Shown here piece after piece: positions 2,665-30,516 of a stretch of 64,000 nt of DNA. Positions within the stretch are counted from its first letter, which is position 1, and every line of letters begins with the position of its first letter. The notes under the pieces were generated by a model, which saw nothing but the letters and a program-made list of their open reading frames with translations, had not been told where the DNA came from and searched no databases. The DNA comes from Atriophallophorus winterbourni (Eukaryota; Platyhelminthes; Trematoda; Plagiorchiida; Microphallidae): the NCBI GenBank assembly GCA_013407085.1, contig JACCGJ010001650.1, forward strand, positions 182,568-246,567. The letters run 5' to 3'. A program made the translations under genes and the position numbers.

Positions 2665-5350
2665 GTCGCAGTGTTGGCTCGCTTCCAGCATTCTGCCGGT
2701 ATGGCTGAGAGTATATGGTGCCGTATAAGGACTGCAGCTTCATTTGCCACGATAGGTGTCGTTTATCGTTCTCCCAATACTCAGGCAGATACTGTGATAT
2801 CATAGATATGTCAGTATGGTAGATCCTCAAACTGCTTGATTATGGGGGATTTCAATGCTCCTAGTATTGATTGGACTTCGCTAGATGAAGTTTCAGGGTC
2901 ATTCGAGCGGGACTTATTGGACGCTGTGGTTGATGTGGGCCTCGTGCAGCACGTTTCCCATCCGACCAGAGTAGGCCCTACTGTGTGTGAGTCCATTTTG
3001 GACTTGGTATTCACTCCCACGCAGTCCGATATTACTCAACTTCGGACTGAAGCTCCATTAGGCTGCAGTGACCATGCCACCTCAAGTTTTATGTGGAAAC
3101 GCAACACTGGCTGGGTACCAGATCCAATTCCCAGAAGGAATTTTTGGAAGGCAGACGTGGGTAGGTTACGGGATGTTGCTTCATCTCTCGATTGGTCTTT
3201 CGATCAAGCAGCTGATGTTGAAGATTGTTGGCTGGTGATCCGTAATAACATTTTGACAGTTATTGAGGTGGCTATTCCGTTGTCCATACGTCGTCGTAAG
3301 GCGAAAGGTCCACCTTGGTTTGATAAGGAGATAAGGAAACTTTTGCAGCAACGTCAAAAGCTCTGGTCGATATTCGTAAGTCGGAAAAACGCCACTGACT
3401 ATGACAATTATCGGCAAGCTAGAAACCTTTGTACGGCATTAAAACGCAGGAAACGTATGTTGTACGAGCAGCGATTGGTTGACGAGTCTACTTGTGCACC
3501 AAAACGGCTATTCGCATACATTCGACGCCGCACAAAGGCGTCGCCATATATTCCTAATTTGATAGATACTAATGGGGTAGACATTACTGAGGGTGGTTTG
3601 AAAGCTGAAGCCATGGCTAAGCAGTATGCCTCCGTGTACTGTCTGGAAGACAATGATCCTCCTTCTGTCTCTAATGACAGTGAGGTGCTGTCTGATCTTG
3701 ATGTAGATGTAGAGACTGTTAGACACCTGTTGGAACAGTTAGACACACAATCCGCGCCAGGACCAGACGGTATTCATCCGTTGGTTTTACGAGCACTATC
3801 AGAAGTGTTGTGCGTTCCGCTGGCCAGGTTGTTTACAAAATCTGTAACATTAGGGGTCTTGCCACAAGAATGGAAACAGGGTATTATTAAACCTATGTTT
3901 AAGAGTGGGGACCCCAGTAGTCCTGCTAATTACAGGCCGGTCACATTGACTTCTGTGATCGGTAAAATTTTAGAGAAGCTGATCAAAAGGAAATTAGAGC
4001 ACTTTCTTTTGGAGTGTGGGCGTTGGTGTCCACAACAACATGGATTCACCAAAAATCGCTCATGCGTAAGTAATCTGCTCCTGGCGCGAGAAAGTTGGTG
4101 TGCTTTGACTGATTCTGGTCAAGAGGTCGATGTCATTTTTATCGACTTTAGTAAGGCGTTTGACCGCGTGCCCCACCGCCGATTGCTCGTCAAGCTGGAG
4201 GGTTTGGGTATTCAGGGTTGTCTACTTAAATGGATCGAGGCATCCATCTCAGGGCGGTCAAACCGTGTCGAGGTGAATGGAGTTTTGTCTTCAGAGATGA
4301 TAGCAGGCTCCGGAGTGCCGCAGGGATCTGTCCTTGTCCCATTGTTGTTCAAAGTTTTCGTGAATGATATTTCGGACGCGGTAGCGATCGATTGTCTTTT
4401 ATTCGCGGATGATCTGAAACTGTGGGCCTCTGTCAGTTCCTGCGATGGCCACAAGCAACTGCAACAAGCAGTTGATGACTTAGTCAGTTGGACACATCGC
4501 TGGTCACTGCCTATCAATGAGGACAAGACAGTGGTCATGCGCATAAACTCCGATGACACTGGTGGTGAATACTTTATTGGAGGTAAGCCTATTAGAGCGG
4601 TGACGGTCGAAAAAGACTTAGGGATTCTGGTTATGGATTCCTTGAAGTCGAAGGCTGACACTTGTCGGAGAATAGGCAGCGCTACCAGGATGCTCTGGGC
4701 GATTCGGCGTTCCTTTGCGTCCATTACCCCGCAAATGTTCCAGACACTTTTCTCTGTGTACATTCGTCCTCTGTTGGAATATGGGCTACCTGTTGCATTT
4801 CCTCAGTCCAAAGGCGAATGCGACTCCTTGGAGAGGGTACAAAGGAGGGGCACTAAGATGGTTTGTGGAATGCGCCAACTCGCGTACGAGGATAGGAGGA
4901 GCTTGCTGAAACTCTACCCCCTAGAGCTTCGAAGGGAAAGATATGACCTGCTCCTGACACGCCGTATTCTTCTCGGTCAATATGGAGACGAGTTCCTCCA
5001 GTACTTCCGATTAGTAGGTGAGTCGAGGACTCGTGGACATGACTTTAAGTTGCAGAAGCCTAGAAGGCTGAAGCTGAGTAATGCGAGCACGCTATCCACG
5101 CGGGTGGTGAACACTTGGAACTCTCTACCGAAAGGGCTCCTGTCTCTACCATCTGAACAGCTATTCAAAAGCGCGTTGGATCAGCATTTGTTGAGACGGA
5201 TGGACTTGATCCCCGGAGTGATATAGTGGTGTTCCTCTACTCTCAGGGTTTGCTTTGTCAGCAGAAGTCACCCATGTCTATTGCTGTGATGAAGCTCAAA
5301 CGGGATTTTATCCCTTCCGCTTTCGATTCAGAAGAAGAAGAAGACTGGTA
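2665..5350 (+). mobile_element. CR1-like non-LTR retrotransposon, 5' truncated
   Basis: The copy starts abruptly inside the endonuclease at about 2665, where it becomes about 90% or more identical to the copy at 48870-49350 by eye. It runs through endonuclease C-terminus and reverse transcriptase to a stop at 5226. A GAA-rich stretch at about 5330-5343 may be a tail. Stops between 2665 and 2835 show the endonuclease part has decayed, while the RT frame stays open for 796 codons. 5' truncation is usual for LINE insertion by target-primed reverse transcription. Confidence 0.85.
2836..5226 (+). CDS. CR1-like ORF2: endonuclease C-terminus plus reverse transcriptase
   Basis: This is the longest uninterrupted frame in the window (796 codons). 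The first about 100 residues are the end of an APE endonuclease: GDFNAPSIDW (from residue 4), SILDLVF, and LGCSDHA with the catalytic His. The RT follows: SAPGPDGIHP, NYRPVTL, QHGFTKNRSC, FIDFSKAFDRVPH with the first catalytic Asp, GVPQGSVL, and LLFADDLKLW at about residue 521, where both catalytic Asp are intact. The C-terminal RT region LEYGLPVAFPQ..GECDSLERVQRR is also present. The ATG at 2836 is only the first Met in the open region. The true start lay upstream and the endonuclease is incomplete, so it could not mobilise itself. Confidence 0.88.
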   Translation: MIMGDFNAPSIDWTSLDEVSGSFERDLLDAVVDVGLVQHVSHPTRVGPTVCESILDLVFTPTQSDITQLRTEAPLGCSDHATSSFMWKRNTGWVPDPIPRRNFWKADVGRLRDVASSLDWSFDQAADVEDCWLVIRNNILTVIEVAIPLSIRRRKAKGPPWFDKEIRKLLQQRQKLWSIFVSRKNATDYDNYRQARNLCTALKRRKRMLYEQRLVDESTCAPKRLFAYIRRRTKASPYIPNLIDTNGVDITEGGLKAEAMAKQYASVYCLEDNDPPSVSNDSEVLSDLDVDVETVRHLLEQLDTQSAPGPDGIHPLVLRALSEVLCVPLARLFTKSVTLGVLPQEWKQGIIKPMFKSGDPSSPANYRPVTLTSVIGKILEKLIKRKLEHFLLECGRWCPQQHGFTKNRSCVSNLLLARESWCALTDSGQEVDVIFIDFSKAFDRVPHRRLLVKLEGLGIQGCLLKWIEASISGRSNRVEVNGVLSSEMIAGSGVPQGSVLVPLLFKVFVNDISDAVAIDCLLFADDLKLWASVSSCDGHKQLQQAVDDLVSWTHRWSLPINEDKTVVMRINSDDTGGEYFIGGKPIRAVTVEKDLGILVMDSLKSKADTCRRIGSATRMLWAIRRSFASITPQMFQTLFSVYIRPLLEYGLPVAFPQSKGECDSLERVQRRGTKMVCGMRQLAYEDRRSLLKLYPLELRRERYDLLLTRRILLGQYGDEFLQYFRLVGESRTRGHDFKLQKPRRLKLSNASTLSTRVVNTWNSLPKGLLSLPSEQLFKSALDQHLLRRMDLIPGVI

Positions 5351-9081: not shown

Positions 9082-9308
9082 TCGGTGTCCCAGGGATGAT
9101 TAATGGAAATTTAATGAATCACACGGTTGTGCATATGCCTTCACAATCACTACCATCCCAACCTGCAGGATGTCCGATTGAAAAGACAAAATTGAATGAG
9201 AATGTGTTGATATGCGGCTTCAATCTATCCAAGCTACCTAGAAATACGATGTTTATAATCTGTATAATCGGTACTTTCGTTTCTTACCTTCTGTACGGAA
9301 TGTTACAG
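9082..9308 (+). CDS. SLC35B3: SLC35B3 exon 1 (first coding exon seen)
   Basis: Acceptor TTCCAG at 9076-9081 and donor GTGAGT from 9309; ends in phase 0. From ATG 9096 it encodes residues 1-71: a polar N-terminus, the conserved NLSK segment, then the first membrane helix (MFIICIIGTFVSYLLYGMLQ). The codons between 9082 and 9096 are open, so translation might begin in an earlier exon. Confidence 0.88.
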
Positions 9309-12300: not shown

Positions 12301-15300
12301 TCCCTGAGCGACAAGTGTTCGCTTCAATATCAAACAATTTCGGGCGAGACACGCTCAAGTATGCCAGACGATGGGAAACATACAGCCATCAAGCAGCATC
12401 AACGAACGAACAGCTTTTCTATTTACACGAATGCCAACGAAACCGACTAACGCCGAATGGCTTACAACGTCGTCCACCACTCAATCATCTCCGTGCAATA
12501 AAACTATTGGAGAAACAAATCCGCGATGATGATGATCACAGATGCTCACGGAAGACTGAGGAAATACAAAGCTATAATAAATGAAGAACAAGCGAGGTGC
12601 GACATCCACTTTGGGCAGTGTCATGATTGGTACTTGTTTGTGCTGTACACCTTTTGCATACAGTTACTAAACTTTCATATTTACATTTCAGCTCATGTAC
12701 TCTCGTTCTAGATAAGTAAAGCGTTACTTATTCTATACTAACGTGACTTCCGTTTGAACTCAATTCGGATCAGATTCTACAACGTTACAGGCAGCAAATA
12801 GCAAATGACCTGGAGAAAGCAATTAAGATCACAACAAGCCGAGCAAAAATGAAGAAGCGAAGAACGCTTGACCTGAAATCGCAAAGAATTCTGCCTAATG
12901 AATGTGATAATTGCACCGAAACCTGGGTGAGAAATCTTTCAACAAAGTAACTAACCAAAAAGCGGGCACTTGCGAAAGGACTAAACTTTAATTATCGGGA
13001 TCTCGATACAAGTGAATTCATAGCAGGTCTGGAAGATATAATCAAATCTCAAGATCTGGATCAAGATAAGATAAAATTTTCGGCAAAAAATCATTACCGC
13101 ATTACAGAGAAACGTACAACACCCCTTATTTAGAAGTGAAGAAAGGAAAGTCATCAACAAGCTTAATAACGACCAGAACGACCATTTTACCCATAGACAA
13201 AGGGCGAATGAAGGTAGTTATGGATAAAGCTGATTACATCGAGAAAGGTAAAGAACTGCCTACCGACAGGTCAGTGAAGATGAAACGAACCGACTAGATA
13301 ACAAGATTAACCCTGCTCTCAAGAGACTGAAGTTCAAGGCACAGATTACCAATGCTGAATATTTCCAAATGAAACCCGAAGATTCCTCAATTCCGCCATT
13401 ATACGATCTACCAAAGGTGCACAAAGAAGGTATCCCACTGCGTCTAATTGTTTCACTGCCCGGAGCACGCACACATAGATTGTCGAAAGAACTACGTATA
13501 AAACTCGTCAGAGGCTCAAACCATTCCGTGAACTCGGCAGAAGAATTCCTCAAAAAGCTGCAAAACGTAAAGATAACTGGCGACGAGCTGATGGTCTCCT
13601 TCGATGTCACCGCCCTATTTACGTCGATCGACCTTACACTCACCAAGCAAACAATTTCATCGCTGCTAACGGAAAACGGAACAACGTATGGCGAAAATCC
13701 TATCACTCATGAGGAACTAATGACACTCTTGGATCTTTGCCTCCAGACTCAATTCAAGTTCAATGAAAAATTGTATGAGCAGATCAAAGGAACTCCAATG
13801 GGGTCGCCTATCTCTGGACTGATAGCGGAAGCAGTAATGCAGAGATTGGAACGCATTGCCATTCCTCTAATAGAACTGAAACTTTGGGTACGCTACGTGG
13901 ACGACACTTTCGTCATAATCAAGTAATCACAAGTCGAATACGCTCATAGACTACTGAATTGTGTCTTCACAGGAATAAATTTCACGAAAGAAACTGAAAT
14001 CAACAGGTGTCTACCGTTCTTGGATGTTCTCGTCACTAGAAGCGATACGGATCCCTACAGACAAGTGTCTATCGGAAACTCACATACGGACCAAATCCTA
14101 AACTTTAAAACTAAGCATCCGATTGCTTACAAAATGAGCTGCGTACACTGTTCAACCTAGCGCAAACGCATTGCAATTCGTCTGAAACGCTGGTAGAGGA
14201 AGCAAGATACCTTTTCCAGGTTTTCAAGAAAAACGGTCACCCGAAGAACTTTATACTATGATACAAATCGCCAAGGAGCTTTTCTACGGAGCAACCAAAC
14301 GCACAGGTCAGGAAACCCCTACCATACATTGAAATGTTTCAGAAATCGCTGCAACAGTACTGAGACCACTTGGAATCAATGTTGCATAAAGACCTACGCG
14401 AACATTCCGCAATCAGCTGTTCAAAACAAACGTGGTCTACAAAATCACATGTGCGGATTGTGAGATGCATTACGTGGGAAAAACGGGAAGGAGATTGGGC
14501 ACCAGACTGAGTGAACACCTATCAGCGGTGAGGAGACACAATTACAAATCGCTACTATCAATTCACGGTAACCAAGAAGGACATAAATTCAACCGGAATG
14601 GGACCAGAGTCATTGCAAGGGGACGCACGCGCCACATAAGAGAATTCATCGAAGCGTGGCACTCAACGCTGCCATTGAATCAACACGTTCAATTGGACGA
14701 CATGTATGTGTCAATAAGGAACCGAACATTAAGCAGGGTGAGCTTGAGATCAACCAATGACGAAGAAAGAAACTGAACGGTCAGCGTATAAAAATAAGAA
14801 AACACGACGATTATAAATAATTCGCAAGAAGCTCAGCTGATGATGTCATCTAGCTTGATGACGAAACGCCCTACTGCAACAATGCCAGCTCAGCGAACAC
14901 AACGCACAACATCCAATCCCTCAGCGACAAGTATTCGCTTCGATATCTAGCTCCCATGATACCTGCCACATTCACCTAATTGCCTAACACGTGCCAACGA
15001 ATGAGACTGTTGGCAGAATGGTGATCCCTTAACTTGAAGCTCAATTCCGACTCAATTCCACTCTTAAGTATTTATAATTTTGAATATAAGCTAGTTTGTT
15101 GATGTGAAATGAGTTGGTCTTGCGCTAGACTTATGTATTCTGTCATATATTTGCGTAACCTTCCGTTTTTTTATTTTCCCCGCCATAGGAAGCAATCTTT
15201 AGCAAAGAAGAAATGCGGTTGCACAGCGCTTACATGACCCTCTTTCAGTTTGCGCTGTATTCAGTGTTATCCTATTTCGAACTCCGATTGCAAGGTTCTT

Positions 15301-18300
15301 CAATCAAACCGTGAGTTTCCCACCGCTTCGATTATTTCATATTGCAGATTTGGCGGACACTTGTACTGTCTCTTGGCCATCCTCACCCTCGGGACGATTG
15401 CATTTTCCAATGCCTCCGTGAGCTATTTGAACTATCCAACCCAAGTGATTTTCAAATGCTGCAAAATGATACCAGTTATGATCGGTGGTGTGGTGGTCCA
15501 GCGTATGTACTCGGCATTTTGTGTTTTTTTTCAACTTACCCCATTTCCACCATAGGCAAGGGTTATTCCTTTTTGGAAGTGCTTGCTGTCCTTTGCATGA
15601 CGTTGGGTCTGATCTGCTTTACTTTGGTTGACGTGTCTGTTCAACCAACATTCACTTTTGTCGGTATGTGACGTTTTCGTTGTATTGTTGGTTTTAAATT
15701 GTATCCATTATGATATAGTTTACTCCTATTTATTTATCTAGTCATTCTTTGCTGCTCTTACGTCTAGAAATAACTGAAAAAAACGTTTTGTGATGCGAAA
15801 GTCGTCTTTACCTTACCGCTCTCAGATTTGAATGATTCAAAATCTCCGGTCAAACGTTCCTGAGCAGACTAACATTGGTTACCGTAATGCGACTGATTAA
15901 TGCAATGAAATTTGAAGCAGCTTTAAGACCGTTATTCTCGAACCTCGTGTACTTGAAGTGAAATATCTGACATTTAATTTGCACTGAGGTTTGGTGTGCT
16001 CTAGTCGTTTCGAGTACTCATATCGGAAGGCAACCTCCCATTCCGTTGCCTTTTGACTTAGATATGAATATCAACGGCTGCGGTTGCACAGCGGTTAGGA
16101 AGTTCCACGTTAAATCCAACGACCCATGTTCGATCATGCTGCAGCTCCAGGCAATGTACATAAATCTCAGCATACCCAGATTTGACAACAGCAACCGTGA
16201 CTGCCTAGCCCCCTCTCCATTGAATGGAATCTTATCAACTAGACAGCGTTATGCTAAAGAAAAGAATGCCAAAAGTATTCGCATCCCACGGGCTGGGGCC
16301 TGTAACTAACCGTAACCGAGGTTTCTTATGGGTTAAGACTAGGTATGCTTTGTCTTATAATCCGGATATATTGACTTCAGGTCCACTCACCTTTTGAGAT
16401 GGTTTTCAGAGTTACCGCTGTCGAATTGCTCTACATGTTGTCTAGTTTGGTCGTTTCCGACATATAGAATTGGAAATTGATTTGACTTTAATTCTTCGCG
16501 GTTCCTTATTTCACTTTATCGGTACTTCAAAAATATCGAAACTTGATTAGTTCTTTATTTGATACCTGTTTATCCAAATTCGTCCAACGTAAAACCGAAA
16601 CTTAACTCCCGTTTACGATATTTTAGGTGTCGTCTTGGTTACTTTGGCCCTGTGCTGTGATGGCGCATTGGGTAATTTTCAAGAACTCGTTATGCACCGA
16701 CTGAAATGTTCCAATACGGAAATTGTAAGTTTTCTTCTGTGTGCTATACGCACCCGTGTGTAAATCAATAATTGGTCTGTCGCTTATTTTATTTGCTGTC
16801 ACGTGTTTTTCTACGGGTTCGCTACAAGCAACTCACGTCCGGTGACCAATCGAGCCTCGCCTTCAAGAGGGTGTTTCCGCGTTATTTCAACATATTTCTC
16901 TTCCGTTTGCATCCGTGATTTCGCTGGAATATTTCAATCTATACAAGCTATCGCTTTATCAAAACAAATTGTTAAACTGCTACTTGCGACTTGGCTTGAG
17001 TACTAAGCAAATTTTTTCGATATTTTTGTATTTCAGAGGCCGCGTTTGTTAGTTTTAGGCACGTCCGGTGACCAATCGAGCCTCGCCTTCAAGAGGGGCT
17101 GGGGCCTGTAACTAACCGTAACCGAGGTTTCTTATGGGTTAAGACTAGGTATGCTTTGTCTTATAATCCGGATATATTGACTTCAGGTCCACTCACCTTT
17201 TGAGATGGTTTTCAGAGTTACCGCTGTCGAATTGCTCTACATGTTGTCTAGTTTGGTCGTTTCCGACATATAGAATTGGAAATTGATTTGACTTTAATTC
17301 TTCGCGGTTCCTTATTTCACTTTATCGGTACTTCAAAAATATCGAAACTTGATTAGTTCTTTATTTGATACCTGTTTATCCAAATTCGTCCAACGTAAAA
17401 CCGAAACTTAACTCCCGTTTACGATATTTTAGGTGTCGTCTTGGTTACTTTGGCCCTGTGTTGTGACGGCGCATTGGGTAATTTTCAAGAACTCGTTATG
17501 CACCGACTGAAATGTTCCAATACGGAAATTGTAAGTTTTCTTCTGTGTGCTATACGCACCCGTGTGTAAATCAATAATTGGTCTGTCGCTTATTTTATTT
17601 GCTGTCACGTGTTTTTCTACGGGTTCGCTACAAGCAACTCACGTCCGGTGACCAATCGAGCCTCGCCTTCAAGAGGGTGTTTCCGCGTTATTTCAACATA
17701 TTTCTCTTCCGTTTGCATCCGTGATTTCGCTGGAATATTTCAATCTATACAAGCTATCGCTTTATCAAAACAAATTGTTAAACTGCTACTTGCGACTTGG
17801 CTTGAGTACTAAGCAAATTTTTTCGATATTTTTGTATTTCAGAGGCCGCGTTTGTTAGTTTTAGGCTTTTAGTGAGCCATTTGTAAAACAACCTGGACTA
17901 GAATGGTGAGACATTTTACCTGTGGTCGCCTGATTTTACCTCTGGAGAGTCGCCTGTTTCGATTGACGCGTTCAAAATAATAAGTTCAGATGAAGCCCTG
18001 AAAAAAAACAAAGTTTGGAATGAATCGGTGAGAGTAGTTTATTGGTAACGTTTCGCTTCTGACGAAACGAACTACTCTCACCGATTCATTACAAACTTTA
18101 TTTTTCATGATTATGATTCCCCGACCGGTCACGAACATTTTCCATCACATGAAACCCGTTTAGCAGGAATCTGCTGCCTCACCGCTTCGGGGTCGGATAA
18201 TCTTGATGATTCGAAATCTGGATGCGTCACAAATAACTCCTTGTAACGAGAGTATAATATTGCTGCACGGGCTTCAATAAACCTCCACTTGTAATGATAT

Positions 18301-21300
18301 CAAGTTGGTTAGTTATTCAATATCGAACTCCCTGAACCTACTCCACACCGTTTTAGACTTTACTGCTGTGATTATTACATCGTTCAGGAATGATGGTTTG
18401 TGCTATCTAGATTGCAACTCTAAGTGTAACTGCGTGTTGTATTTGTGTATGAAACCACAAGCCTGATCCAGGCAAAGTGAGCAACATGGTCATAGACTGT
18501 GTTTAAGCTAAGATACTACCAGAATGATTTTGCCTCCTGGCTTTCTTGACTGGGCACAAGGGTCATCCATCGAGATCTCGCCATAAACGGACGGTGACAT
18601 TTGCGTTTTCGACTGATTAGTACTTAACGGTGATAAACACGAAAACGAGACTCGCCATCTAGAAATTTTGAAAATGTTTGACACCGATCGGGAAACCGCA
18701 TTCATGAGACCAAATTCTGTCATGAATCGCCTGGAGCTATTTTTAGATAACGGCTCACTTCATTAACAAAAGCTCTGGGAGACAAAGTGTATCATTACGA
18801 CCCGGGGCAGGTTTAAATGGCAGTTACTTGACCAATCCTAGGCTGGTACTGAGCTTGCGGAATCCATGTCCCATCTAGGGGTGATGCACTTCAATGTATA
18901 TCCCATGTAAAACGGATGCTAGATCGTGGAGATTTCTGCCTTTTCCACCTTGTTGACCTCATTCCTACTAGTTTTTATTCCAGCTGCTTCAACGTGAAAT
19001 TGTTCCATATAAATTTTCACCTCTCGCCTTATTACCTCCACTTTATGAAGATTTACAGATCTTGGTTGATCTTTACTGGAATTGTGAGGTTGATTTTCGG
19101 TTCACTGTTGGTGCTCGTTTATTCGAATATTTTAATTGTGTGCCCGCTATAAACTCCCGGGTAACCATTGAAGTTGATTTTAATCACAGTTCATTGTGCG
19201 GCAGAGCGTTCTGACTCTTTTATGCAGTATTATTAAACAATCCATGCCTTGGAACAAGAGATTTTTTCTGTTTTCAGTAGCTGATTTTGCAACCGTTGTG
19301 ATGCTATTGCTATTCGCAATCAACCGTAAGAGTTTGGTTATCTTTAGTCTCTTGATTATAGATTTCACCATTTTTTCTCCCTGGGCTTAACAGCTTATGA
19401 ATAATAATCCAGCCTACTTCTAAGTACGTCAAGGATCAAGATTCCATTAAACAATGCGGATCACCTAACATTGATCTATTCGGGTTTACTTAACGCCCCG
19501 GAAAATGATGCAATGTTAACTTAGCAATACGAACCGGGCAAATGATTCGTTTCTTATTCAAAAAGCCACTGTCATGATTGCTTGGGACATGTCATTTGCT
19601 GGGTGTTCACAACTTCTGTAATGCGTAGAAAACTATTGAAACATCGAAAGGTAGCGTAAATTACTTTCCAATGTTTTACAAGGTGTTTCTTAAACTTGTC
19701 AATTACTCTTTCTGACTCTCTTTGTGTTCGCGCGCACTTCCCGACCGTATTGATTCACGTTTCAGCTTTTCTACTCCTACACAATTGGATTTTTGTTCCT
19801 TCTATTTGGTCTCCTCTCCATCGGCTCACTCATCCCATCTCTCCAGTACTTTTATAAAGTAAGTTCGTAGCCCGTTAACGGAATTTTCAAACTAACAGTG
19901 ATGGGTATCACTTGTATGCAGAATAGCACAACCACGGTTGGTGTTTAATCCCGAATTTATGCAGCGAATATGTGCATACCGTTAAACCGGCATGTCTAAT
20001 CGTGTGCGCAGTCACATGCACACGGATATTGAAATTGCATTCGACTTGTCATAAAGTCTATTTGTTTACGCGGATTTCGGTTCCTGTGACTCAGTGTGTT
20101 CTATTGCCATCAGGTTTGACATTCAACATTCCATTTTCGCGTAACACTTGAAATTCAAATTCATCTTTCCGTAGCGTGTGCTGCCTTTGTATTACTTTGA
20201 GCGCTGCGCGCAAATGGATACGTTTTTCCTGTCGTCATACTGATCAAATTAATTAATTTACCTTACACCCGCTAAATGGTTCGATTCGAGGTTTCATGAT
20301 GATAATAGACTACTACTTATGTTTGTCTAGGCCTGAGAAACCTGACAGTATATTAGCCAACGTACAGTCTCTGACTGTACGGCACTTTGCCTGGATCAGG
20401 CTTGTGCTTTCATACCATACCATACTTATGTTTGTTGGACTGATGCTCCCCTACAGAACATAATTTGCCCTACTGCGTCAGCATAGCCTACGATATATGC
20501 GTGAGCTGTAAAATGGATAATGGTCGCATTCCAAAAGGTATGCTCTATCGGGGATTAATTTTGGGCAGTAAGTCTTTGGTTATACCGCAAGACGTTTGTA
20601 AAAGAAATGAAAGAAAAATTAAAATCCTAAAATTTGGGGAAGGGGGACTTAAATAGCTACGGATTCTATATGAGAGTAAGCACAAACAACTTGGAAGTGG
20701 TGCCTACACCATGAATCAAACGCATTCAAACAAGTTTCGTGAACGAGTAGAGCGACAGCATGACAGCTAGCTTGCGGCTTTCACTGCCGTACATCGTAAC
20801 ATGCTTTTGTCATCACTCCGCTTGACAACATACAATGTTAAGCAAACACTCCAAGATGCTTAGTGCAAGACCGCCATTCAACACGGTTTTGGGACATATT
20901 CTGAAGCGTAACTAGCCATTGCGATATCTGATCACGGGGACACTAGCCTGGAAGACGTACTGCGCTGACTTTGGAAAGGTTACTAGTAAGGGTTTTTAAC
21001 TGCCTATGCCACGTGATGGTTTGGCCTCCACGATATTTACGCTAATCGGGATGTAGTGTCGCAAAAAGAATCCGTTTCGGAAGTCGGTGGTCCGGCATCC
21101 GTAAAACGTGACCCAACCAGCGTAACCAACGTAGGTTGATCTGCTTCTCTATATCAACATTACTACCCAACAACTTATTTCGGAGAGCATCGGTGCGAAT
21201 GCGATTGTAACAGCTAACTCCTAGAATGTTTCGGAGACATCGGTTGTCAAATACTTGGAGACGCTGAATGTGTTCTTTACGTTAGGTCCACGTTTCGCAC

Positions 21301-24300
21301 CCATACAGTAATACAGCCGAATTGTCGCTTTATAGATTCTACAGTTGAGTAACAGAAACAGTCCGTTCTGACCCCAGAGATGACCTAGGTTGCGGAATGC
21401 TACGGTCGCTTTAGAAATGCGTGTCGAGACCCCATCATCTAACGATGCAGAATTATCGATACAACCACCGAGATACGTAAAGCGATCTACAATTTCAAGC
21501 GCCTGATTGTCAACTAATAAAGTGCTATTTGATACGTCTATGTCATGCAGAAGAACACTGCACTTAGAGGGTGCAAAACGCATTCAAAATGCGGGCACAA
21601 TACTAGCTTGCCTGTTCAGTGTCGCCTGTGCATCTGCGTATGAGCCGAAGAGCAGAACTATATCATCAGCATACACCAAGTCGAGAAGCTTGCCGCCTGG
21701 CATTATGTGAACTCCGAAAGCTGGGGCACCATCGTTGCACAATTCCATGATGTCATCAATTACATAATTGAACAGAAACGGAGAAATCGGACATCCTTGT
21801 CGGACGCCACTAGTGGTGCGGAATTTAGGAGAGAGTTCGTTGTAAACCTTAACGCATCCGGATGTATGACCATAAAGTGCACGTAGTATGTTGACATACT
21901 TTTGTGGAACTCCTTTGCACAGCAAGTTGTTAAACAGGACATTTTGATCGACTGAATCAAATGCTTCTTTGAAGTCTAAAAAGATGGCTATTGTCGGCTG
22001 TCAATAGGTGTGACGCAATCCTAAGATCCGTCGAAGAGTAAAAATGTGGTCAACATAGCCTCTACCAGGCCGGAAGCCATGTTGCTGCTCTTGTAACTTT
22101 GATTCCTTATGCGATGTTAATCTTCGAAGGCATGTGGACGCTAATGATCTCGTAATGGAGTGAGACTTATCCAACGGCGATTAAAGCAGGAGCTTCGCAC
22201 ACCTTTTTTAAATATCGGTATGATACCCGATTCTCCCCAACTCTGGGGGACGGATTCTTACAACCACACTTTACGGAGGGGATCGCCTAATGTGCAGATT
22301 AGGACTTGGTCACATTCTTGGAACTATACATGCGGTATGTCATCGGGACCAGCGGCTTTGAATCGTCTCATAGATTCGATACATGCTTTAATTTTTTAAA
22401 TAATTAGAGGATCTACGCTAACAGCCCAAGGATCACACTGCTTCAGATGAGTGAATGATTCTGTTGCAGGCGATCAGCTGAATTGTTCTTCAAAATGGCC
22501 GGCCCAGCGTGAGAGGCGGTGATTCTTATTAGTGATGAGAGTACCGTCTATTTCAGCGATAGTCTCACTCACTCCTTTTTTTCGTAGGCCCCGTCGATCG
22601 AATAAATTGGAAGAGTTTTCGCACGTTACCCGCATTATTTGCTATTTCCATTTGTTCGATCTTATTTAGCCACCACTTTTCTCTGTCTAGTCTTAAGCTC
22701 CGTTTAAGTTCATTCCAGGACCATGAGGTATTTGGTGTTGCTGGTGAAGAATTTCTATAGAGCCCTGAGAAATCCAGTGGGACTTTTGGGTTGATTGTGT
22801 AATCTCACAGGCTGTTATTGCGGTGGCTCGCGTAATCACCGCTATTTTGTTCCACCTTTCATCGGCAGTTGCACACGGGGAAACTGGGAGTGAGTTACTC
22901 AAGGTGGTCCTATGAATTTCTTGACCTGCAGGCGGAGAGAATTTTTTGACCGCAATGCAGTTCCCGTTCGAAGGATTCGGACCGGAAAACTTTAACGAGA
23001 ACCTACATCGCACAAGAGCATGATCTGAATCCATATAGGTATTCCAAAAGGAGCGGCAGTCGTCAGTGCAACCTCTCCGGCGGGTACTTACGACGATATG
23101 CTCGATTTGGGCCGAAGGTTGGCTTCCATCCGGCGAGCGCCATGTGGCACATTGACATGTTTTATGGCGAAAGGAAGTGCTGCTAATGAATAATCGAGAT
23201 TGTGCACAGAATTGTATAAACCGTTCACCATTATCTGTGCGTTGGCCTTCAAGACCAAACATGCCACCTAATTGTGATTCAGATGTATCCAAGCGACCCA
23301 GTATGACATGCTTATCTCCAACTAAGAGGCGTTCTTCTCGTCGTTGGAATTGGTGTTGCACAATAAACAAGCATCTCTGATTAAACGATTTTGAGTTTGG
23401 TCTAATATTAGTAGCTAGTCTTACTACGCACATCCTGCTATTGCAAGGAATCCAAGTGATTAGTCAGGATTCGGCCCGTGAATTTAGCACTATACCAACA
23501 CCCGCCTGTCCTGAGACGGCAGCTACAGAATCAGCAGAGCAGCGCGAAAAGTAGCGAATTGAAAGGTTTGGGGTAGTAATTTCAGTAATTATAGACGGAT
23601 CATATGCGCGCGTTGCCGATAAACAGCAAACATCAATAGTTAGACTATCTAAGGTATGAGTAAATGCAGCTTGCTGGCCTATCTGTCTGAGAGTTCTGAC
23701 ATTCATGGCTCCGATGTGAACAGAGTTCCGTGGTTTCAGAAATTCGCAAACAGAAAATGTTCTAACATGTTCGGCGAGGTCTTTTCGGAGGCTGGGATTG
23801 ACAGGCGAAGAGTTGTTAATTGTGGATGGAGGAGGGGAAGGGTCAGAAACCGTTTGAAGAGTAGGGCCAGCAGTAGCTTGTTTTCGCTTACCCGCCACGC
23901 TGTACGCAGCAGGTAAGGCGACCCTGTTTATCGTGCGCGACGGCCGATGCACTATGAAGTTGGGTTTTTTGGTTATAGTCATGGTCGTATGCGGGCTGGG
24001 ATACTGCCAGGTCACCCATGCCTAGACAGGAGAACAATTAGGGTTCTAGACCAAAGCCTTTGGCTAAAAAGCCTGACCCACAAGGCAGCGGGTTAGGTTG
24101 AGACCGTGTTCGTCTGACCTCTATCCATTGACCTTCATGGTATGAGTGACTCTGAAGGTGCTCGGAGTCTTGATCCAATCAAAGTGCCGCATAGTCAGAG
24201 ATTGTGTGGGCTGAGATATTGCCAGGCTGCCCAGGCCTAGACGGATATAAGGTAATATGATCATATACAAACTGTTCATACTCTGTAATGTCAAACCTTT

Positions 24301-27300
24301 GAGTTGCTGTAGAGATTCGTGTGCTTCTTAATTCTGTCATTTTGTTTGTTTTCTCTTCCATTTTATTAGAACCCAATCCCAACCTACTGTTATGGAATTG
24401 TGTTCTCACTGTGTGGTTACTTTGGCCTTCATTTTGTTCTGTGTATGGTACAATCTCACGGAGCTTTGACTGCGGTGACCGGTAGGTCGGAATAGATTCA
24501 GTGTTCTCACGGATCGTTTTGCTTACTGTTTTTATTTTACCACATGTAAACTAAATTTATGCTTTGGGTGTGGATTTTACATACGGCAACGCTCATTAAT
24601 CTCATTCCAATCCGCTGTTTACTAGAGCAATGTCTTATTGACGATTTGCTTTCACGTGTTTCTGACACGTTACAGTACATTGATGACTAAAGTTATCCGC
24701 TGAGCCATTGAGATGCGATATCGATTTTTTCATCGACTCAACTCGATTGGCGCACAACCACGGCATGGAAAAAACGCCCAACGGCATAGAGAGCAAACAA
24801 TCTAACTAATAATCTTCCTCCATTAGACGGAGTCAGTCTTCTTAGCTAGGATCATCTTGATGAGATTTAGCGGGGCGATAGTTACTACTAAGGATTTGTT
24901 TCAGAACTCTTTCCACTTTTGACGTAGGCGTCTTGTCAGGTGTGTTTAAGTGAAATGTTTCGCTTGCTGTGTGAGTGCTGAAGAAAACATACTATCGCGC
25001 TTGACAAAGAAAGCTGTCATGCTAACGTCACTTCACCCTTCACACAAATAATGTTTGCTGTTAGTCAACATCGTGCACACTTCAGCCCACTTTCTGTGCG
25101 CTTTTTTAATACACACGCTTTACTTCTTAATTTCTCTTTCCCATTTTCTGTGTGTGCATAATGATGTGGTGATTGTGTTGCAGTCGAGCATCCGTATGCT
25201 ATATGTTTTTGAGGAGTTACGCATCTTTGTTTGTTTGTTAAAGTGGTCGCGCTGCATGACAATAATCATTATCACTCTGGATACAAGTATGGGGAGCAAG
25301 CTGGTGTACCTTCTAGCTTGAGTGTTCTCCCCATTTCTCAGTACACAAACATTTTCTATCTACCCCAGTGATTTAATAGTGTATTGGATGTCGTCACGGA
25401 TGCTGCTAACTTGCTGTTTATCAGTTTAAACATAGGTATGAATGCTTTTGTATACGCAGTAGGCATAATTTTCAGCCAGGTCATTGTTCACGCGTGGCTC
25501 TTAATAAATTGAGTTCCTGCGAATGTGAAACTTGTCCAGCTAACGAATTAAAAATGATTCCGTGCATTTATTCAGCTTTTAAAATTCACTGGGGAGGTCC
25601 TGCTCTAATACGCAATTGTAAAACTGGAAGTGAACGCTTTGTTTTGGCACCGAAAACTTGCCGCTTTGTTGTCAATTTGTCTCTACCCGCATTGAGTGTT
25701 CAACTAATCAGATTTATTGTCTGTTGTAATTGCGTCGTTATGCAAGCTTCATCGATTGTCTGGTGATTGTACTCCGCTGTGTCCTTACTTTCAACTTTCT
25801 ATTGATCGTTATCGTATTTCGTTATGTGGCTATAGTTTTTCTCAGCATTCCGCTGTTCGAGATTTAATGTCGTTCCCTACTGTTCTGGGGTTATCCTGTT
25901 CTCAATTTCGAATATCAGTGTTTTCGTTCTCACCTCCCGTAGTTTTACCTTATCGGTTTGCTTGACAACCGGAACTCCGGTCGTGTGTGACAGTAGCACG
26001 GAACGTACAGCGGCAACTGCTGGTTTACAATTTATTTCCACACAAGCTGTTCCGGGTAATCAGTGCGACTAGATCTCACGTTGTCATTTCCAACTTGGGA
26101 GCGCTTCATCCGTCGCACAAACTTAGGCATCCTACTCGATGGTGCGTTAGTCACCTGAAAGGTGTTTACAATGTACTGCTTACTAGGATTCACAAGTGAC
26201 GGTGGTGATAACAAGGGCTTGACCACCTCAATCTTCGTTCCATCTTTGCACCAACATTAACCTGTTTGCTTCTTCAACCATTTCCCGTCAGATATTGACC
26301 TAGCCTGTACTTATTTCACTGTTGTGCTGCCGGCTCCATGGGTCAGTTGTTCTTTGTCAACTGAAGTTCGTACTTTAAAACTCGGCACTGTTTTCAAACT
26401 TACTTGAACATACCTAATGCCAATATCGCAAACTTGATGGAAGAGCGTGGCCGTCTGTTGTTAACTCATGTGCCTCTTTTGTTCGCTTGTCTCTAATGTA
26501 TTTGTCTCATTCTGTTTCAGTTACCACATTTCGAAAAGCCGTATCGATGATGTTGTCTTTCATGTTGTTTGAGAAGAGCTTCTCTTTCGCGTACGTTCTT
26601 TCTCGTTGGTTTCAATTGAACGCTTACATTTCTACATAATTCTTTTTTTAATATTTTGATGATTTTGCTCTGTATAATATATTTGGCTGTTGTGATAGCC
26701 TGGTGTGTTATTGCTGTCACTTGCTCTCTTTTCTCGATAAGTGTCTCATCAAGCAGTTCGATTAAGCATTTTAATATTTTATGATGTTCTAGCTTGCTTC
26801 GTTTGGCTACATAAACATAAAGGTGATCGCGTCTGTTATGCCATTAACTTACGACCTATGAAGGACGAAAATTTAAGTGTGACCTTGAGAGGTTATTCTA
26901 CTTCCCTTAATGCTATCATGACTTGCTACAGCAAGAATGCCTACTCGCATCCCATACGTTTCAGAGTGAGCGAGATTATTGTTCTGAAGATCACTGAAGC
27001 CAATCTTGTTATTCGCCTAGTGTTGGCAAACAACTGGAAACCGGTAGAGTGATGCCAGTCCTACAGATGTGAGCAATTTAACTGACATTCGCGCAGCCAA
27101 AACTGCCGTTGAGCTGAGGTATACGATGGGGAAATGAGTTTTATGCAAATAACTGGTTATTCGGAGCACATTTCGCTTAATTGATGAGTTGCCAAATGTT
27201 TTCGCAAGCCATTAGTCTGATCAAAGTCCCTCGAATGATGCTTCATAGTTATTTTCATTGAACCATGGGACTCGATTCATGTCATTGGAAACAAGATAAT

Positions 27301-30300: not shown

Positions 30301-30516
30301 GAACACTTACTTAACGCGTACGCTAACTGATAACTAACAACATCTTTGTGGTCCGTTGTTCACAGTTACGTTTGGTCCGGACTCCTGGTGGTTTTTGGGC
30401 TGTATTTGAATTTGTACACGAAAAATCGCAAATCGTGGGATCCGGTCATCCACGCCTGGTTGCACAAAGTTGGCCTAAGGAAGAATCCCCCGTTGACGTC
30501 TGTTTGCCCGATGTAG
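9096..30516 (+). CDS. SLC35B3: SLC35B3-like PAPS transporter (PAPST2), nine exons
   Basis: Joining 9096-9308, 15189-15310, 15348-15502, 15556-15663, 16627-16724, 19766-19858, 24370-24481, 26521-26590 and 30366-30516 gives 1,122 nt, exactly 373 codons plus TAG, with all phases compatible. The product is a multi-pass membrane protein of the SLC35/UAA nucleotide-sugar transporter family and aligns end to end with SLC35B3. Family knowledge: it imports adenosine 3'-phospho-5'-phosphosulfate into the Golgi for sulfation. Landmarks are NLSK near residue 31, YLNYPTQVIFKCCK (138-151), IPVMIGG, the GVVLVTLALC helix in exon 5, FSLCGYFG, ALTAVTVTTFRKA, and YVWSGLLVVFGLYLN near the end. The acceptor at 9080-9081 leaves the frame open upstream of ATG 9096, so an upstream exon may add residues. 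Oddity: exon 5 is duplicated (17433-17530). Confidence 0.93.
9309..10029. other. Start of SLC35B3 intron 1, unique sequence
   Basis: Intron sequence after the donor at 9309. I see no coding similarity or recognised repeat before the first SINE-like copy at 10030. Confidence 0.5.
10030..10142 (+). repeat. SINE-like repeat copy, degenerate
   Basis: Recognisable core (CCTAGGCCTGAGCTACCTGA, TAGCCCACGTACAGTCT) with many substitutions in the 3' half, and a TACATACATA tail. It is an older copy just upstream of the full-length one. Confidence 0.68.
10310..10538 (+). mobile_element. Full-length SINE-like element (229 bp) with 12-bp TSD
   Basis: A perfect 12-bp direct repeat, TTACCTCTGTAT, flanks the element (10298-10309 and 10539-10550). 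The 5' part contains GCACGGATGTGCAATCGTGCAG and GCTAAATTGATTGGCCAACG, the middle GAGTCTCACTACC..CATATCTGTCTAGGCCTGG, and the 3' part CAGTCTGTGACTGTGCGGCA..GGCTTGTGCTTTCATAC. No open frame of note and no clear tRNA-like A and B boxes, so the promoter type is unknown. The target duplication shows it moved as a retroposon; the partner LINE is not proven. I use this copy as the family reference. Confidence 0.85.
10551..10909. other. Intron 1 spacer
   Basis: No gene recognised. Part may be decayed gypsy pol sequence upstream of the integrase remnant. Confidence 0.4.
10910..11945 (+). pseudogene. Ty3/gypsy integrase remnant
   Basis: Across frames the sequence reads as a retroelement integrase: a zinc-binding end (NCSKCQSSAKSPP at about 11045), SPWSRLHIDFAEPI, the core VDAYSKWPEIFPM with T.EATI..L, FGVPDILVSDHG with a catalytic Asp, FCQLNDIQHICSLPYHPDSNGQ, and a C-terminal stretch like gypsy integrases (MNRKLRLSFDAIYP at about 11540). 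Frames shift at about 11170 and 11420 and stops occur later. The style matches trematode CsRn1-type Ty3/gypsy elements. Upstream RT and RNase H are missing. Confidence 0.78.
11946..12248. other. Spacer, possibly gypsy 3' end
   Basis: Contains an AATAAATTT motif at about 12123 that could belong to a decayed 3' LTR, but no second LTR copy was found. Confidence 0.3.
12261..12331 (+). repeat. 5' copy of Penelope pLTR-like direct repeat
   Basis: This 71-bp segment, starting ACAATGCCAGCTCAGCGAAC, is repeated at 14879-14947 with only a few substitutions and a 2-bp gap. Confidence 0.8.
13369..13926 (+). pseudogene. Penelope-type reverse transcriptase, central part
   Basis: A 185-codon open segment contains PPLYDLPKVHKEGIPLR (Penelope RT fingers motif), SFDVTALFTSI (first catalytic Asp), GTPMGSPISGLIAE and WVRYVDDTFVI (catalytic Asp pair). 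A stop follows at 13924-13926, while homologous sequence (RLLNCVF..INFTKETE, then LPFLDVLV) continues to about 14110. The RT is therefore broken but recent enough to keep its catalytic residues. Confidence 0.85.
14432..14776 (+). pseudogene. GIY-YIG endonuclease domain of the Penelope-like element
   Basis: The frame reads VYKITCADCEMHYVGKTGRR then LGTRLSEH, the GIY-YIG fold with the YI/YVG pair and the conserved Arg. It ends in a basic tail rich in Arg and Ser. The Cys-x2-Cys before the YVG motif is a Penelope trait. The Met at 14432 is not a real start: the domain is the C-terminal part of the RT polyprotein, separated from it by frameshifts. Confidence 0.87.
14837..14867 (+). ncRNA. Hammerhead-ribozyme-like core in the Penelope 3' repeat
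   Basis: The sequence has CTGATGA (14837-14843), one base, a perfect 6-bp stem II (GTCATC 14845-14850 with GATGAC 14857-14862, loop TAGCTT), then GAAAC (14863-14867), the conserved hammerhead core in the right order and spacing. Hammerhead motifs are documented in Penelope-like elements. Stem III and the cleavage triplet are not clear (CTA at about 14871-14873 is the nearest candidate), so cleavage activity is doubtful in this copy. Confidence 0.6.
14879..14947 (+). repeat. 3' copy of Penelope pLTR-like direct repeat
   Basis: Partner of 12261-12331. It lies directly downstream of the hammerhead-like core, the arrangement expected for a 3' pseudo-LTR. Confidence 0.8.
14966..15188. other. End of SLC35B3 intron 1
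   Basis: Unique intron sequence ending in the acceptor CCGCCATAG at 15187-15188. Confidence 0.5.
15189..15310 (+). CDS. SLC35B3: SLC35B3 exon 2
   Basis: 122 nt, phase 0 to phase 2. It encodes residues 72-111 and part of 112, starting EAIFSKEEM and continuing with helix MTLFQFALYSVLSYFEL. It is followed by a 37-nt intron (15311-15347). Confidence 0.9.
15348..15502 (+). CDS. SLC35B3: SLC35B3 exon 3
   Basis: 155 nt. It encodes residues 113-163, including SNASVSYLNYPTQVIFKCCK and IPVMIGGVVVQ, the most conserved part of the family. The following intron is 53 nt with donor GTATGT. Confidence 0.92.
15556..15663 (+). CDS. SLC35B3: SLC35B3 exon 4
   Basis: 108 nt. It encodes residues 165-199 (KGYSFLEVLAVLCMTLGLIC, then FTLVDVSVQP); acceptor CATAG, donor GTATGT. 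It is followed by a 963-nt intron. Confidence 0.92.
15664..16290. other. SLC35B3 intron 4, first part
   Basis: Unique intron apart from the tRNA-like segment at 16077-16145. Confidence 0.5.
16077..16145 (+). repeat. tRNA-like segment, possible SINE head
   Basis: A GCTGC/GCAGC acceptor-like pair (16077-16081 with 16141-16145) encloses an A-box-like GGTTGCACAGCGG and a B-box-like CCATGTTCGATCATG with a 4-bp T-arm. The other arms are poor. I read it as tRNA-derived repeat sequence, not a working tRNA gene. Confidence 0.4.
16291..17060 (+). repeat. Tandem duplication, copy 1 (806-bp period)
   Basis: Repeated at 17097-17866 with an offset of exactly 806 bp. The two copies look identical by eye except at two positions inside the exon (16655/17461 and 16661/17467). 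The block carries SLC35B3 exon 5 with both splice sites and flanking intron. Confidence 0.93.
16627..16724 (+). CDS. SLC35B3: SLC35B3 exon 5, copy 1
   Basis: 98 nt between acceptor GATATTTTAG and donor GTAAGT. It encodes residues 201-232 (VVLVTLALCCDGALGNFQEL then VMHRLKCSNTEI), entering in phase 1 and leaving in phase 0. An almost identical exon follows 806 bp downstream. Because 98 is not a multiple of three, including both would shift the frame. Confidence 0.92.
17061..17096 (+). repeat. Filler at the duplication junction
   Basis: The bases between the two copies (ACGTCCGGTGACCAATCGAG, then CCTCGCCTTCAAGAGG) are a third copy of an internal stretch of the unit at about 16834-16869 (also 17640-17675). 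This suggests template switching rather than a simple unequal crossover. Confidence 0.85.
17097..17866 (+). repeat. Tandem duplication, copy 2
   Basis: Second copy of the 806-bp-period duplication. It begins GGCTGGGGCCTGTAAC as copy 1 does and ends at about GTTTTAGGC. Confidence 0.93.
17433..17530 (+). CDS. SLC35B3: SLC35B3 exon 5, duplicate copy
   Basis: 98 nt with the same acceptor and donor as 16627-16724. It differs at two third-codon positions (TGC to TGT, GAT to GAC), so it encodes the identical peptide. Either copy joins in frame with exons 4 and 6, and using both would not. It may be an alternative exon or an assembly or allelic artefact. Confidence 0.8.
17867..18003. other. SLC35B3 intron 5, short spacer
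   Basis: Nothing recognised between the duplication and the hairpin. Confidence 0.4.
18004..18105. repeat. Long hairpin (inverted repeat)
   Basis: Arms 18004-18040 and 18069-18105 are reverse complements at about 34 of 37 positions. Inside, CGTTTCG (18049-18055) and CGAAACG (18063-18069) form a second stem around CTTCTGA. The minus strand reads GAAGCGAAACG..CCAATAAACTACTCTC, which resembles Penelope-type ends, so this may be a head-to-head junction of element ends. That origin is inference. Confidence 0.82.
18106..19765. other. SLC35B3 intron 5, remainder
   Basis: Mostly unique intron with one SINE-like copy at about 18446-18530. No coding similarity was recognised. It ends in the acceptor TTTCAG at 19760-19765. 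Confidence 0.45.
18446..18530 (-). repeat. SINE-like repeat copy (minus), degenerate
   Basis: Contains GAAACCACAAGCCTGATCCA then GGCAAAGTGAG, and AAGCTAAGATACTACCAG, the reverse-complement core of the family. Confidence 0.7.
19766..19858 (+). CDS. SLC35B3: SLC35B3 exon 6
   Basis: 93 nt, phase 0 to 0. It encodes residues 233-263 (LFYSYTIGFLFLLFGLLSIG, then SLIPSLQYFYK), aligning with the LYSYSIGF helix of the family. Donor GTAAGT. Confidence 0.9.
19859..20326. other. SLC35B3 intron 6, first part
   Basis: Unique intron; nothing recognised. Confidence 0.45.
20327..20422 (+). mobile_element. SINE-like element, 5' truncated, 13-bp TSD
   Basis: A 96-bp copy of the 3' half of the family, flanked by a perfect 13-bp duplication TACTTATGTTTGT (20314-20326 and 20423-20435). 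It begins inside the element at CTAGGCC and ends GCTTTCATACCATACCA. This is 5' truncation as in LINE-mediated retroposition. Confidence 0.88.
20440..20680 (+). pseudogene. APE-type LINE C-terminal fragment
   Basis: The frame includes CKMDNGRIPKGMLYRGLILG, then DVCKRNE, matching the conserved region after RT seen at 59900-60100 (GNCRIPKDLLYGEL..YKDVCKRDMKS). Only this short piece is present; the zinc finger is missing. Confidence 0.6.
21210..22690 (-). pseudogene. RTE reverse transcriptase, interrupted
   Basis: Motifs in order: QHGFRPGRGYVDHI (about 22090), IFLDFKEAFDSVDQ with catalytic Asp (about 21980), SGVRQGCPISPFLFNYVIDD (about 21800), LLDLVYADDIVLLFGSYADA (about 21670) with an intact Asp pair, MRFAPSKCSVLLHDID and RFTYLGG. 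A stop at about 21586 and frameshifts at about 21970 and 22390 break it. Confidence 0.85.
22693..23433 (-). pseudogene. RTE endonuclease, C-terminal part
   Basis: Contains VGDKHVILGRLD (family GD.NAQVG; the Asn is His here), DNGERFIQFCAQSRLFISST and SAQIEHIVVS (usual QIDHI; the Asp is Glu here), then YMDSDHALV with the catalytic His. Two active-site replacements suggest an inactive enzyme. Confidence 0.78.
23464..24015 (-). pseudogene. RTE endonuclease, N-terminal part
   Basis: A proline/serine-rich leader is followed by the endonuclease start (HIGAMNVRTLRQIGQQ) and CCLSATRAYD. The usual Glu of the family's SET/QET motif is Ala here, so the catalytic site is damaged. GVGIVLNSRAES near the end matches the same element type at about 6780. 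Confidence 0.78.
24138..24250 (-). repeat. SINE-like repeat copy (minus)
   Basis: Contains AAAGTGCCGCATAGTCAGAG, GGGCTGAGATATTGCCAGGC and CCCAGGCCTAGACGGATATA. It lies just upstream (on the minus strand) of the RTE start, whose own 5' segment at 23991-24032 resembles it. Confidence 0.8.
24370..24481 (+). CDS. SLC35B3: SLC35B3 exon 7
   Basis: 112 nt, ending in phase 1. It encodes residues 264-300 (NPIPTYCYGIVFSLCGYFGL, then HFVLCMVQSHGALTAVT); acceptor TTTATTAG, donor GTAGGT. Confidence 0.9.
24482..26520. other. SLC35B3 intron 7
   Basis: About 2 kb of AT-rich unique intron. No repeat or coding similarity recognised; short frames in it are chance. Confidence 0.5.
26521..26590 (+). CDS. SLC35B3: SLC35B3 exon 8
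   Basis: 70 nt. It encodes residues 302-323 (TTFRKAVSMMLSFMLFEKSF, then SF), preceded by acceptor TCTGTTTCAG and followed by donor GTACGT. The TT.RKA motif is highly conserved in the family. Confidence 0.9.
26591..30365. other. SLC35B3 intron 8
   Basis: 3.8 kb of intron, largely unique. The only item noted is a weak tRNA-like stretch at 27364-27438. It ends with the acceptor GTTCACAG. Confidence 0.5.
27364..27438 (+). repeat. tRNA-derived segment, likely pseudogene or SINE
   Basis: A GGGCA/TGCCC pair (27364-27368 with 27434-27438) encloses A-box-like TGGTACAGTGG and B-box-like GTTCCAATCCC. The T and anticodon stems do not pair properly. AATAATAAAAA about 125 bp downstream could be a SINE tail. 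Confidence 0.4.
30366..30516 (+). CDS. SLC35B3: SLC35B3 exon 9 (last, with stop)
   Basis: Encodes residues 325-373 and the TAG at 30514-30516: YVWSGLLVVFGLYLNLYTKN, then a short basic cytosolic tail. No AATAAA was found in the next 300 bases, so the polyadenylation site is unknown. Confidence 0.92.

What the first reader, a model, noticed from the sequence alone, without database searches (positions are those of the whole stretch)
16291..17866. Tandem duplication of a whole SLC35B3 exon whose only two differences are synonymous
Exon 5 (98 nt) and about 670 nt of flanking intron are repeated at a period of exactly 806 bp. By eye, the only differences are 16655/17461 (C/T) and 16661/17467 (T/C), both third-codon positions inside the exon; introns and splice sites are identical. 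Since 98 is not a multiple of three, using both exons would shift the frame, so they can only work as mutually exclusive alternatives or as one live and one spare copy. Identical introns with changes only in the exon is unexpected under neutral decay and could reflect gene conversion, or two haplotypes placed in tandem.
Basis: partly seen in the sequence, partly recalled or inferred. Interest (0 to 1): 0.8.

Follow-up and report, generated by a model that had tools for sequence, protein, structure and literature searches.

The report
Recently duplicated exon with templated scar
In an unnamed parasitic fluke, one exon of a sulfate-donor transporter gene has very recently been copied head to tail, and a short extra piece left at the join looks like a DNA-repair slip; it is most likely an ordinary young mutation rather than a working pair of alternative exons.

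Summary
The duplication is in the sequence as described. Two 771-bp copies (16290-17060 and 17096-17866) lie at period 806 and differ only at 16655/17461 and 16661/17467, both synonymous. The 35-nt spacer is a further copy of the unit's own intron (38-nt match, 17060-17097 = 16834-16871), joined with 1- and 2-bp overlaps. That is the scar expected of template-switching break repair, not of two haplotypes laid end to end. The gene is a digenean-fluke SLC35B3/PAPST2, and the eight other exons found are single and intact. Copy A or copy B alone gives the same 377-codon open frame; both give a stop inside copy B; neither shifts the frame. A search of the 537-Mb assembly found the unit only here, so no paralogous donor or haplotig is visible. 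Two differences both falling in the exon has P about 0.016; they lie 6 bp apart, so one event or chance suffices. A regulated mutually exclusive pair is not supported: same protein, same splice sites, a 708-nt intervening intron, and an intronic inverted repeat no better than shuffles. RNA decay could still enforce exclusivity. No reads could be examined, so artefact is not fully excluded.

The parts
16290..17060 (+). duplication unit, copy A (771 bp)
17096..17866 (+). duplication unit, copy B (771 bp), 2 mismatches to A
17061..17095 (+). 35-nt templated insert at the junction; with 1 bp (C) overlap on the left and 2 bp (GG) on the right it forms a 38-nt match 17060-17097 to 16834-16871 (and 17640-17677)
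16834..16871 (+). source of the insert inside copy A (intron 3' of the exon)
16627..16724 (+). duplicated exon, copy A (98 nt, enters in phase 1, leaves in phase 0)
17433..17530 (+). duplicated exon, copy B (98 nt)
16655..16655 (+). C here, T at 17461; synonymous Cys
16661..16661 (+). T here, C at 17467; synonymous Asp
9082..9308 (+). SLC35B3 exon (first one found; an earlier exon may exist)
15189..15310 (+). SLC35B3 exon
15348..15502 (+). SLC35B3 exon
15556..15663 (+). SLC35B3 exon
19766..19858 (+). SLC35B3 exon
24370..24481 (+). SLC35B3 exon
26521..26590 (+). SLC35B3 exon
30366..30516 (+). SLC35B3 last exon, ends with TAG

Best explanation
A genuine, evolutionarily young tandem duplication of one exon plus 673 nt of flanking intron in a fluke SLC35B3 gene. 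Shown from the sequence: two 771-bp copies, a 35-nt insert copied from inside the unit, 1- and 2-bp overlaps at its two joints, all in the same orientation, and no other copy found in the assembly. Inferred: the event was template-switching repair. Synthesis reached the end of the unit, jumped back 226 bp, copied about 38 nt, jumped back a further 580 bp to the start of the unit, and then went on through the unit into the right flank. This could be polymerase-theta end joining of a failed strand-annealing intermediate, or microhomology-mediated break-induced replication (the latter named from memory). The two linked synonymous differences are most simply one later event, or an allelic haplotype copied from, or converted by, the homologous chromosome. 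Functionally (inferred) the pair is not regulated. Identical splice sites and a 708-nt intervening intron allow double inclusion, which makes a premature stop in copy B with copy B's own exon junction and three more downstream. So the allele probably yields a mix of normal single-exon mRNA and RNA-decay substrate, with one copy as a dispensable spare.
For: unit, spacer, source and overlaps; 771-bp query hits only these two copies plus the 38-nt insert in an assembly of 537,331,230 bp; the tool warns that words very common in the genome are skipped; five matches of a 141-residue SLC35B3 segment, all on this contig; reading frames of A-only, B-only, both, neither; two other tandem repeats of 300 bp or more at 96-97% in about 320 kb sampled; one has a 13/14 copy of the unit's own start in its spacer, the spacer of the other was not examined; PMC8654963, passages: C. 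elegans helq-1 mutant tandem duplications of about 100 bp to 10 kb, median about 1 kb, with microhomology and occasional templated insertions, attributed to theta-mediated joining of failed SDSA intermediates.
Against: No reads could be examined, so depth and spanning reads are unknown. The insert source lies 189-226 bp from the break end, farther than I recall for typical theta inserts. Overlaps of 1 and 2 bp could arise by chance. [quoted passage not shown] Both differences in the exon is unlikely for two independent mutations (P 0.016). The sample of the genome is small and not random, and the spacer match in the second repeat is short.
Confidence: 0.76

Rival explanations
1. Assembly artefact: two alleles of one locus, or a chimeric or wrongly gap-filled stretch, placed in tandem.
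For: Draft assembly with a 1000-N gap in the window and 15,840 contigs. 0.26% difference between copies is compatible with allelic difference. False exon duplications on one scaffold are known in assemblies (PMC9516828, passages).
Against: [quoted passage not shown] The joint needs two novel breakpoints and a 35-nt insert copied from inside the unit, which overlap-based joining would not be expected to invent. No second place for the unit or for the gene segment was found in the assembly.
Confidence: 0.15
2. A young, functional pair of mutually exclusive exons, kept exclusive by RNA decay of double-inclusion and double-skip transcripts, or by competing intronic pairing created by the duplication.
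For: 98 nt is not a multiple of three, so both or neither breaks the frame; RNA decay is a described way to enforce exclusivity (PMC6071210, passages). An intronic inverted repeat, 16519-16541 / 17015-17037, lies either side of the exon and is duplicated with it, which allows alternative pairings.
Against: The two exons encode the same residues, so there is no isoform to choose. Splice sites are identical GT-AG, and the intervening intron of 708 nt is no steric block. The inverted repeat is matched or beaten in 14 of 200 shuffles. No transcript evidence.
Confidence: 0.06
3. Old duplication whose introns are kept identical by continuing gene conversion, with the exon escaping.
For: Zero differences in 673 intronic positions against two in 98 exonic (P 0.016).
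Against: Conversion that spares only a 7-nt stretch in the middle of the unit is contrived. The junction insert is also still identical to its source. Nothing but recency is needed.
Confidence: 0.03

Closest known systems
Tandem duplications with templated insertions made by template-switching repair (polymerase-theta end joining; MMBIR/FoSTeS recalled)
   Same: Sub-kilobase direct duplication, short overlaps at the joints, insert copied from nearby DNA (for the C. elegans class).
   Different: Natural genome of a fluke, not a known repair mutant; the insert is long (38-nt match) and its source is about 200 bp from the break end.
Tandem duplicated exons / mutually exclusive exons (Dscam docking and selector pairs, passages; U2AF1 exons Ab and 3, abstract)
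   Same: Adjacent homologous exons of the same length and phase, duplicated with flanking intron.
   Different: Here the protein is unchanged between copies, no regulatory difference is visible, and exclusivity is untested.
False heterotype duplication in genome assemblies (PMC9516828, passages)
   Same: Near-identical adjacent copies with a few SNP-like differences in a draft assembly.
   Different: No gap between the copies; templated insert at the joint. Read depth and k-mers, the other marks, are untested.

Membership tests
Template-switch tandem duplication | two direct copies, head to tail | tested here: met
Template-switch tandem duplication | insert at the junction templated from nearby sequence | tested here: met
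   38-nt exact match; the assembly search found it at three places, all in this locus
Template-switch tandem duplication | microhomology at the joints | tested here: inconclusive
   1 bp and 2 bp overlaps; too short to exceed chance
Template-switch tandem duplication | dependence on polymerase theta or another named polymerase | not testable with these tools
   needs mutants or cell assays
Mutually exclusive exons | adjacent homologous exons with same length, phase and splice sites | tested here: met
Mutually exclusive exons | alternative copies give different protein segments | tested here: not met
   A-only and B-only translations are identical
Mutually exclusive exons | exactly one copy in each mature mRNA | not testable with these tools
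   no transcripts of the species at hand; the closest protein relative found is 67% identical
Mutually exclusive exons | an exclusion device: short intervening intron, U2/U12 mismatch, competing pairing, or frame-break with RNA decay | tested here: inconclusive
   708-nt intron and identical GT-AG sites speak against the first two; inverted repeat not better than shuffles, 14 of 200; the frame-break is present but decay is untested
False assembly duplication | gap between the copies | tested here: not met
   no N between 16290 and 17866; the only N run in the window is 31298-32297
False assembly duplication | half-normal read depth, haplotype-specific k-mers | not testable with these tools
   no reads available
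SLC35B3 / PAPS transporter 2 | UAA-family transporter, closest to named PAPST2 proteins | tested here: met
   PF08449 E 7.2e-42, 144 bits against a cut-off of 26.2; the best named hit is adenosine 3'-phospho 5'-phosphosulfate transporter 2 of Paragonimus heterotremus
SLC35B3 / PAPS transporter 2 | PAPS transport activity | not testable with these tools
   needs a biochemical assay

The most novel reading that the evidence does not exclude
A mutually exclusive exon pair caught at birth: a duplication of a frame-breaking exon whose only immediate guard is RNA decay, with synonymous differences already separating the copies. It would be a natural test of whether exclusivity comes before protein divergence.
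Probability: 0.06. Interest if true: 0.65.

Novelty: new member of a known kind. Interest (0 to 1): 0.33.

Why it matters
Exon duplications are the raw material of mutually exclusive splicing, but the well-studied ones are mostly old. A copy this young, still carrying its repair scar, shows how they start and lets one ask what splicing does with two identical frame-breaking exons before any regulation has evolved. The scar also gives a cheap sequence-level argument against assembly artefact. If the call is wrong, the practical lesson is that the gene model of this transporter would be mis-annotated.

Tried and rejected
Regulated exclusivity by competing intron pairing: an inverted repeat (16519-16541 / 17015-17037) flanks the exon, but 14 of 200 dinucleotide shuffles of the unit do as well or better, so it is not claimed. 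A paralogous donor for gene conversion: none found in the assembly. Known RNA elements: no match in the window at Rfam gathering scores. Tandem Repeats Finder: silent here because of its period limit of 500. Solved structures: the segment matches only SLC35B1 entries (three distinct sequences, best E 6.8e-14), which adds nothing on the duplication.

Naming the species: the SLC35B3 protein is closest to Paragonimus heterotremus at 67% among the 18 relatives aligned. The Atriophallophorus winterbourni assembly (601.7 Mb, 26,114 scaffolds; passages of PMC7936022) does not match 537.3 Mb in 15,840 contigs. A COX1-like stretch (L056) gave 80-81% to unnamed sequences and carries changes at residues that are the same in the three relatives aligned, so it may be a nuclear copy; species not resolved. 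Paper searches for the assembly gave nothing that fits. A paper search for exon duplication with Schistosoma and mutually exclusive exons gave one methods paper (listing only).

Rows left out of counts: searches left out nine loci that overlap the window (L001, L031-L038). One search examined 290,502 non-N bases; one search examined 50,000 bases, of which 20,000 had been, hence about 320 kb in all. Searches also list a 64-bp repeat of period 33 (L042), below the 300-bp size counted here.

Full report
What is there. The window holds two direct copies of a 771-bp unit, 16290-17060 (A) and 17096-17866 (B), at period 806, with 769 of 771 positions the same. The differences are 16655 C against 17461 T and 16661 T against 17467 C. 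The exon is 16627-16724 in A and 17433-17530 in B, 98 nt, between the same AG and GT sites. Both differences are third positions and synonymous: the first Cys and the Asp of the segment LALCCDG. That Cys and Asp are present in 16 of 18 fluke relatives examined; the other two (P0016, P0018) are Schistosoma japonicum models that lack or replace this segment.

The period is 806 but the unit is 771. The remaining 35 nt (17061-17095) are a copy of part of the unit's own intron. With overlapping bases at both ends the match is 38 nt, 17060-17097 to 16834-16871, and again 17640-17677 in copy B. The left joint shares one base (C) with the end of copy A, and the right joint shares two bases (GG) with the start of copy B. 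So the joint holds two separate breakpoints with a templated insert. The assembly search found this segment only in this locus (the tool warns that very common words are skipped).

The gene. The window's + strand encodes a UAA-family transporter (PF08449, E 7.2e-42; the query lacked two exons and part of a third that were found later). The best named relative is adenosine 3'-phospho 5'-phosphosulfate transporter 2 of Paragonimus heterotremus (67% over 360 aligned residues). Exons were located by tblastn with fluke relatives and by splice sites: 9082-9308, 15189-15310, 15348-15502, 15556-15663, the duplicated exon, 19766-19858, 24370-24481, 26521-26590 and 30366-30516. An earlier first exon may exist. 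Of the nine exons found, only one is doubled. A-only and B-only transcripts give the same open frame of 377 codons, counted from the first exon found. Both gives a stop at codon 262 of 410, inside copy B, with copy B's own junction and three more downstream. Neither gives a stop at codon 234 (all).

Is it an artefact? No reads could be examined. Against artefact: there is no N between the copies, the joint carries a templated insert with two breakpoints, and the assembly searches show a single place for the unit and for the gene segment. Gaps between duplicated pairs on one scaffold are listed as a primary mark of false duplications (PMC9516828, passages); the other marks listed there, read depth, discordant read pairs and k-mers, could not be tested. 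For artefact: it is a draft of 15,840 contigs, and 0.26% divergence is compatible with alleles. I put artefact at 0.15.

Are such duplications common here? In about 320 kb of the same assembly, window included, there are three direct tandem repeats with units of 300 bp or more and 95% identity or more. They are this one; one at L044 7917-8590 (332 bp, 96%), whose spacer holds a 14-mer that matches the unit's own start at 13 of 14; and an array with period 368 on C9444 at 22084-23179 (97%), whose joints were not examined. The sample is small and not random: 124 kb of the window's own contig, stretches of two others, and 29 short loci brought in by a repeat element. It is only a rough guide, but it suggests that local tandem duplication is not unusual in this genome.

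How it arose (inferred). The order of the pieces reads as synthesis to the end of the unit, a jump back of 226 bp, about 38 nt of copying, a second jump back of 580 bp to the start of the unit (spacings), and continuation into the right flank. In C. elegans lacking HELQ-1, tandem duplications of about 100 bp to 10 kb (median about 1 kb) with microhomology and occasional templated insertions are assigned to theta-mediated joining of failed strand-annealing intermediates; [quoted passage not shown] Microhomology-mediated break-induced replication, which I name from memory, would leave a similar scar. Another listed paper ties small tandem duplications at breaks to polymerase alpha-primase (PMC8355091, listing only). 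A palindromic repeat element at about 18003-18151, also found on 39 other contigs (a lower bound), lies 137 bp beyond the right boundary and might have stalled replication; this is only an idea.

The two differences. If two independent mutations fall at random in 771 bp, both lie in the exon with P 0.016, and both are synonymous exonic with P 0.0009 (any change) or 0.0023 (transitions). A spacing of 6 bp or less has P 0.016. These are post hoc. The close spacing points to one event: a double mutation, or a short tract carrying an allelic haplotype from the homologous chromosome during or after the duplication. No paralogous donor was found. Consensus building over near-identical copies may also have erased intronic differences or swapped which copy carries which state (inference).

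What it does (inferred). Nothing local distinguishes the copies. The intervening intron is 708 nt, against 963 nt upstream of copy A and 2235 nt downstream of copy B (from the coordinates), so double inclusion is not blocked. I expect a mixture of correct single-exon mRNA and frame-broken RNA, hence a mildly weakened allele or a neutral one. A regulated mutually exclusive pair would need an exclusion device. RNA decay of frame-broken transcripts is one that the literature names (PMC6071210, passages), and the frame-break is present, but it removes wrong products rather than choosing an exon. The inverted repeat that flanks the exon would be the natural candidate under that paper's model that duplications create competing RNA structures, but it is no better than shuffles (14 of 200), and the two exons encode the same residues.

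Verdict. Most likely it is a real, young, unregulated tandem exon duplication with a template-switch scar: a new member of a known kind.

Noticed in passing
18003-18151: Palindromic repeat element (36-nt arms, 94% complementary) found on 39 other contigs of the assembly (40 of 2273 candidates were scored, so a lower bound), 137 bp from the right edge of the duplication.
   Followed up: partly
L044 7917-8590 (C1457, about 160.5-161.2 kb): A second, older tandem duplication (332 bp, 96%) on the same contig; its spacer holds a 13/14 copy of the unit's own start.
   Followed up: partly
C9444:22084-23179 (L053): Tandem array of about three copies, period 368, 97% identity; joints not examined.
   Followed up: no
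2806-5223: Uninterrupted 806-aa reverse transcriptase frame; best relative 54% identical, most of the top hits from unnamed sources.
   Followed up: no
13252-14773: Broken reverse-transcriptase-like frames followed by a frame that looks GIY-YIG-like (labels recalled, not searched), perhaps a Penelope-like element.
   Followed up: no
31298-32297: Run of exactly 1000 N beside a stretch that looks like an LTR-element integrase (label recalled).
   Followed up: no
G000 contigs C4859, C4746, C8922, C11485, C4773, C15234, C10138: COX1-like stretches, most of them with stops, on contigs other than the best one (C6618): perhaps nuclear copies of mitochondrial DNA.
   Followed up: no
P0242 (database protein): A record named COX1 of Schistosoma bovis holds much the same segment three times in a row, which looks like an assembly or annotation error in that record.
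   Followed up: no
P0012, P0016, P0018 (Schistosoma japonicum): Protein models of the same gene that cut short, lack or replace this very exon, so alternative use of this region may occur in relatives, or the models may be wrong.
   Followed up: no
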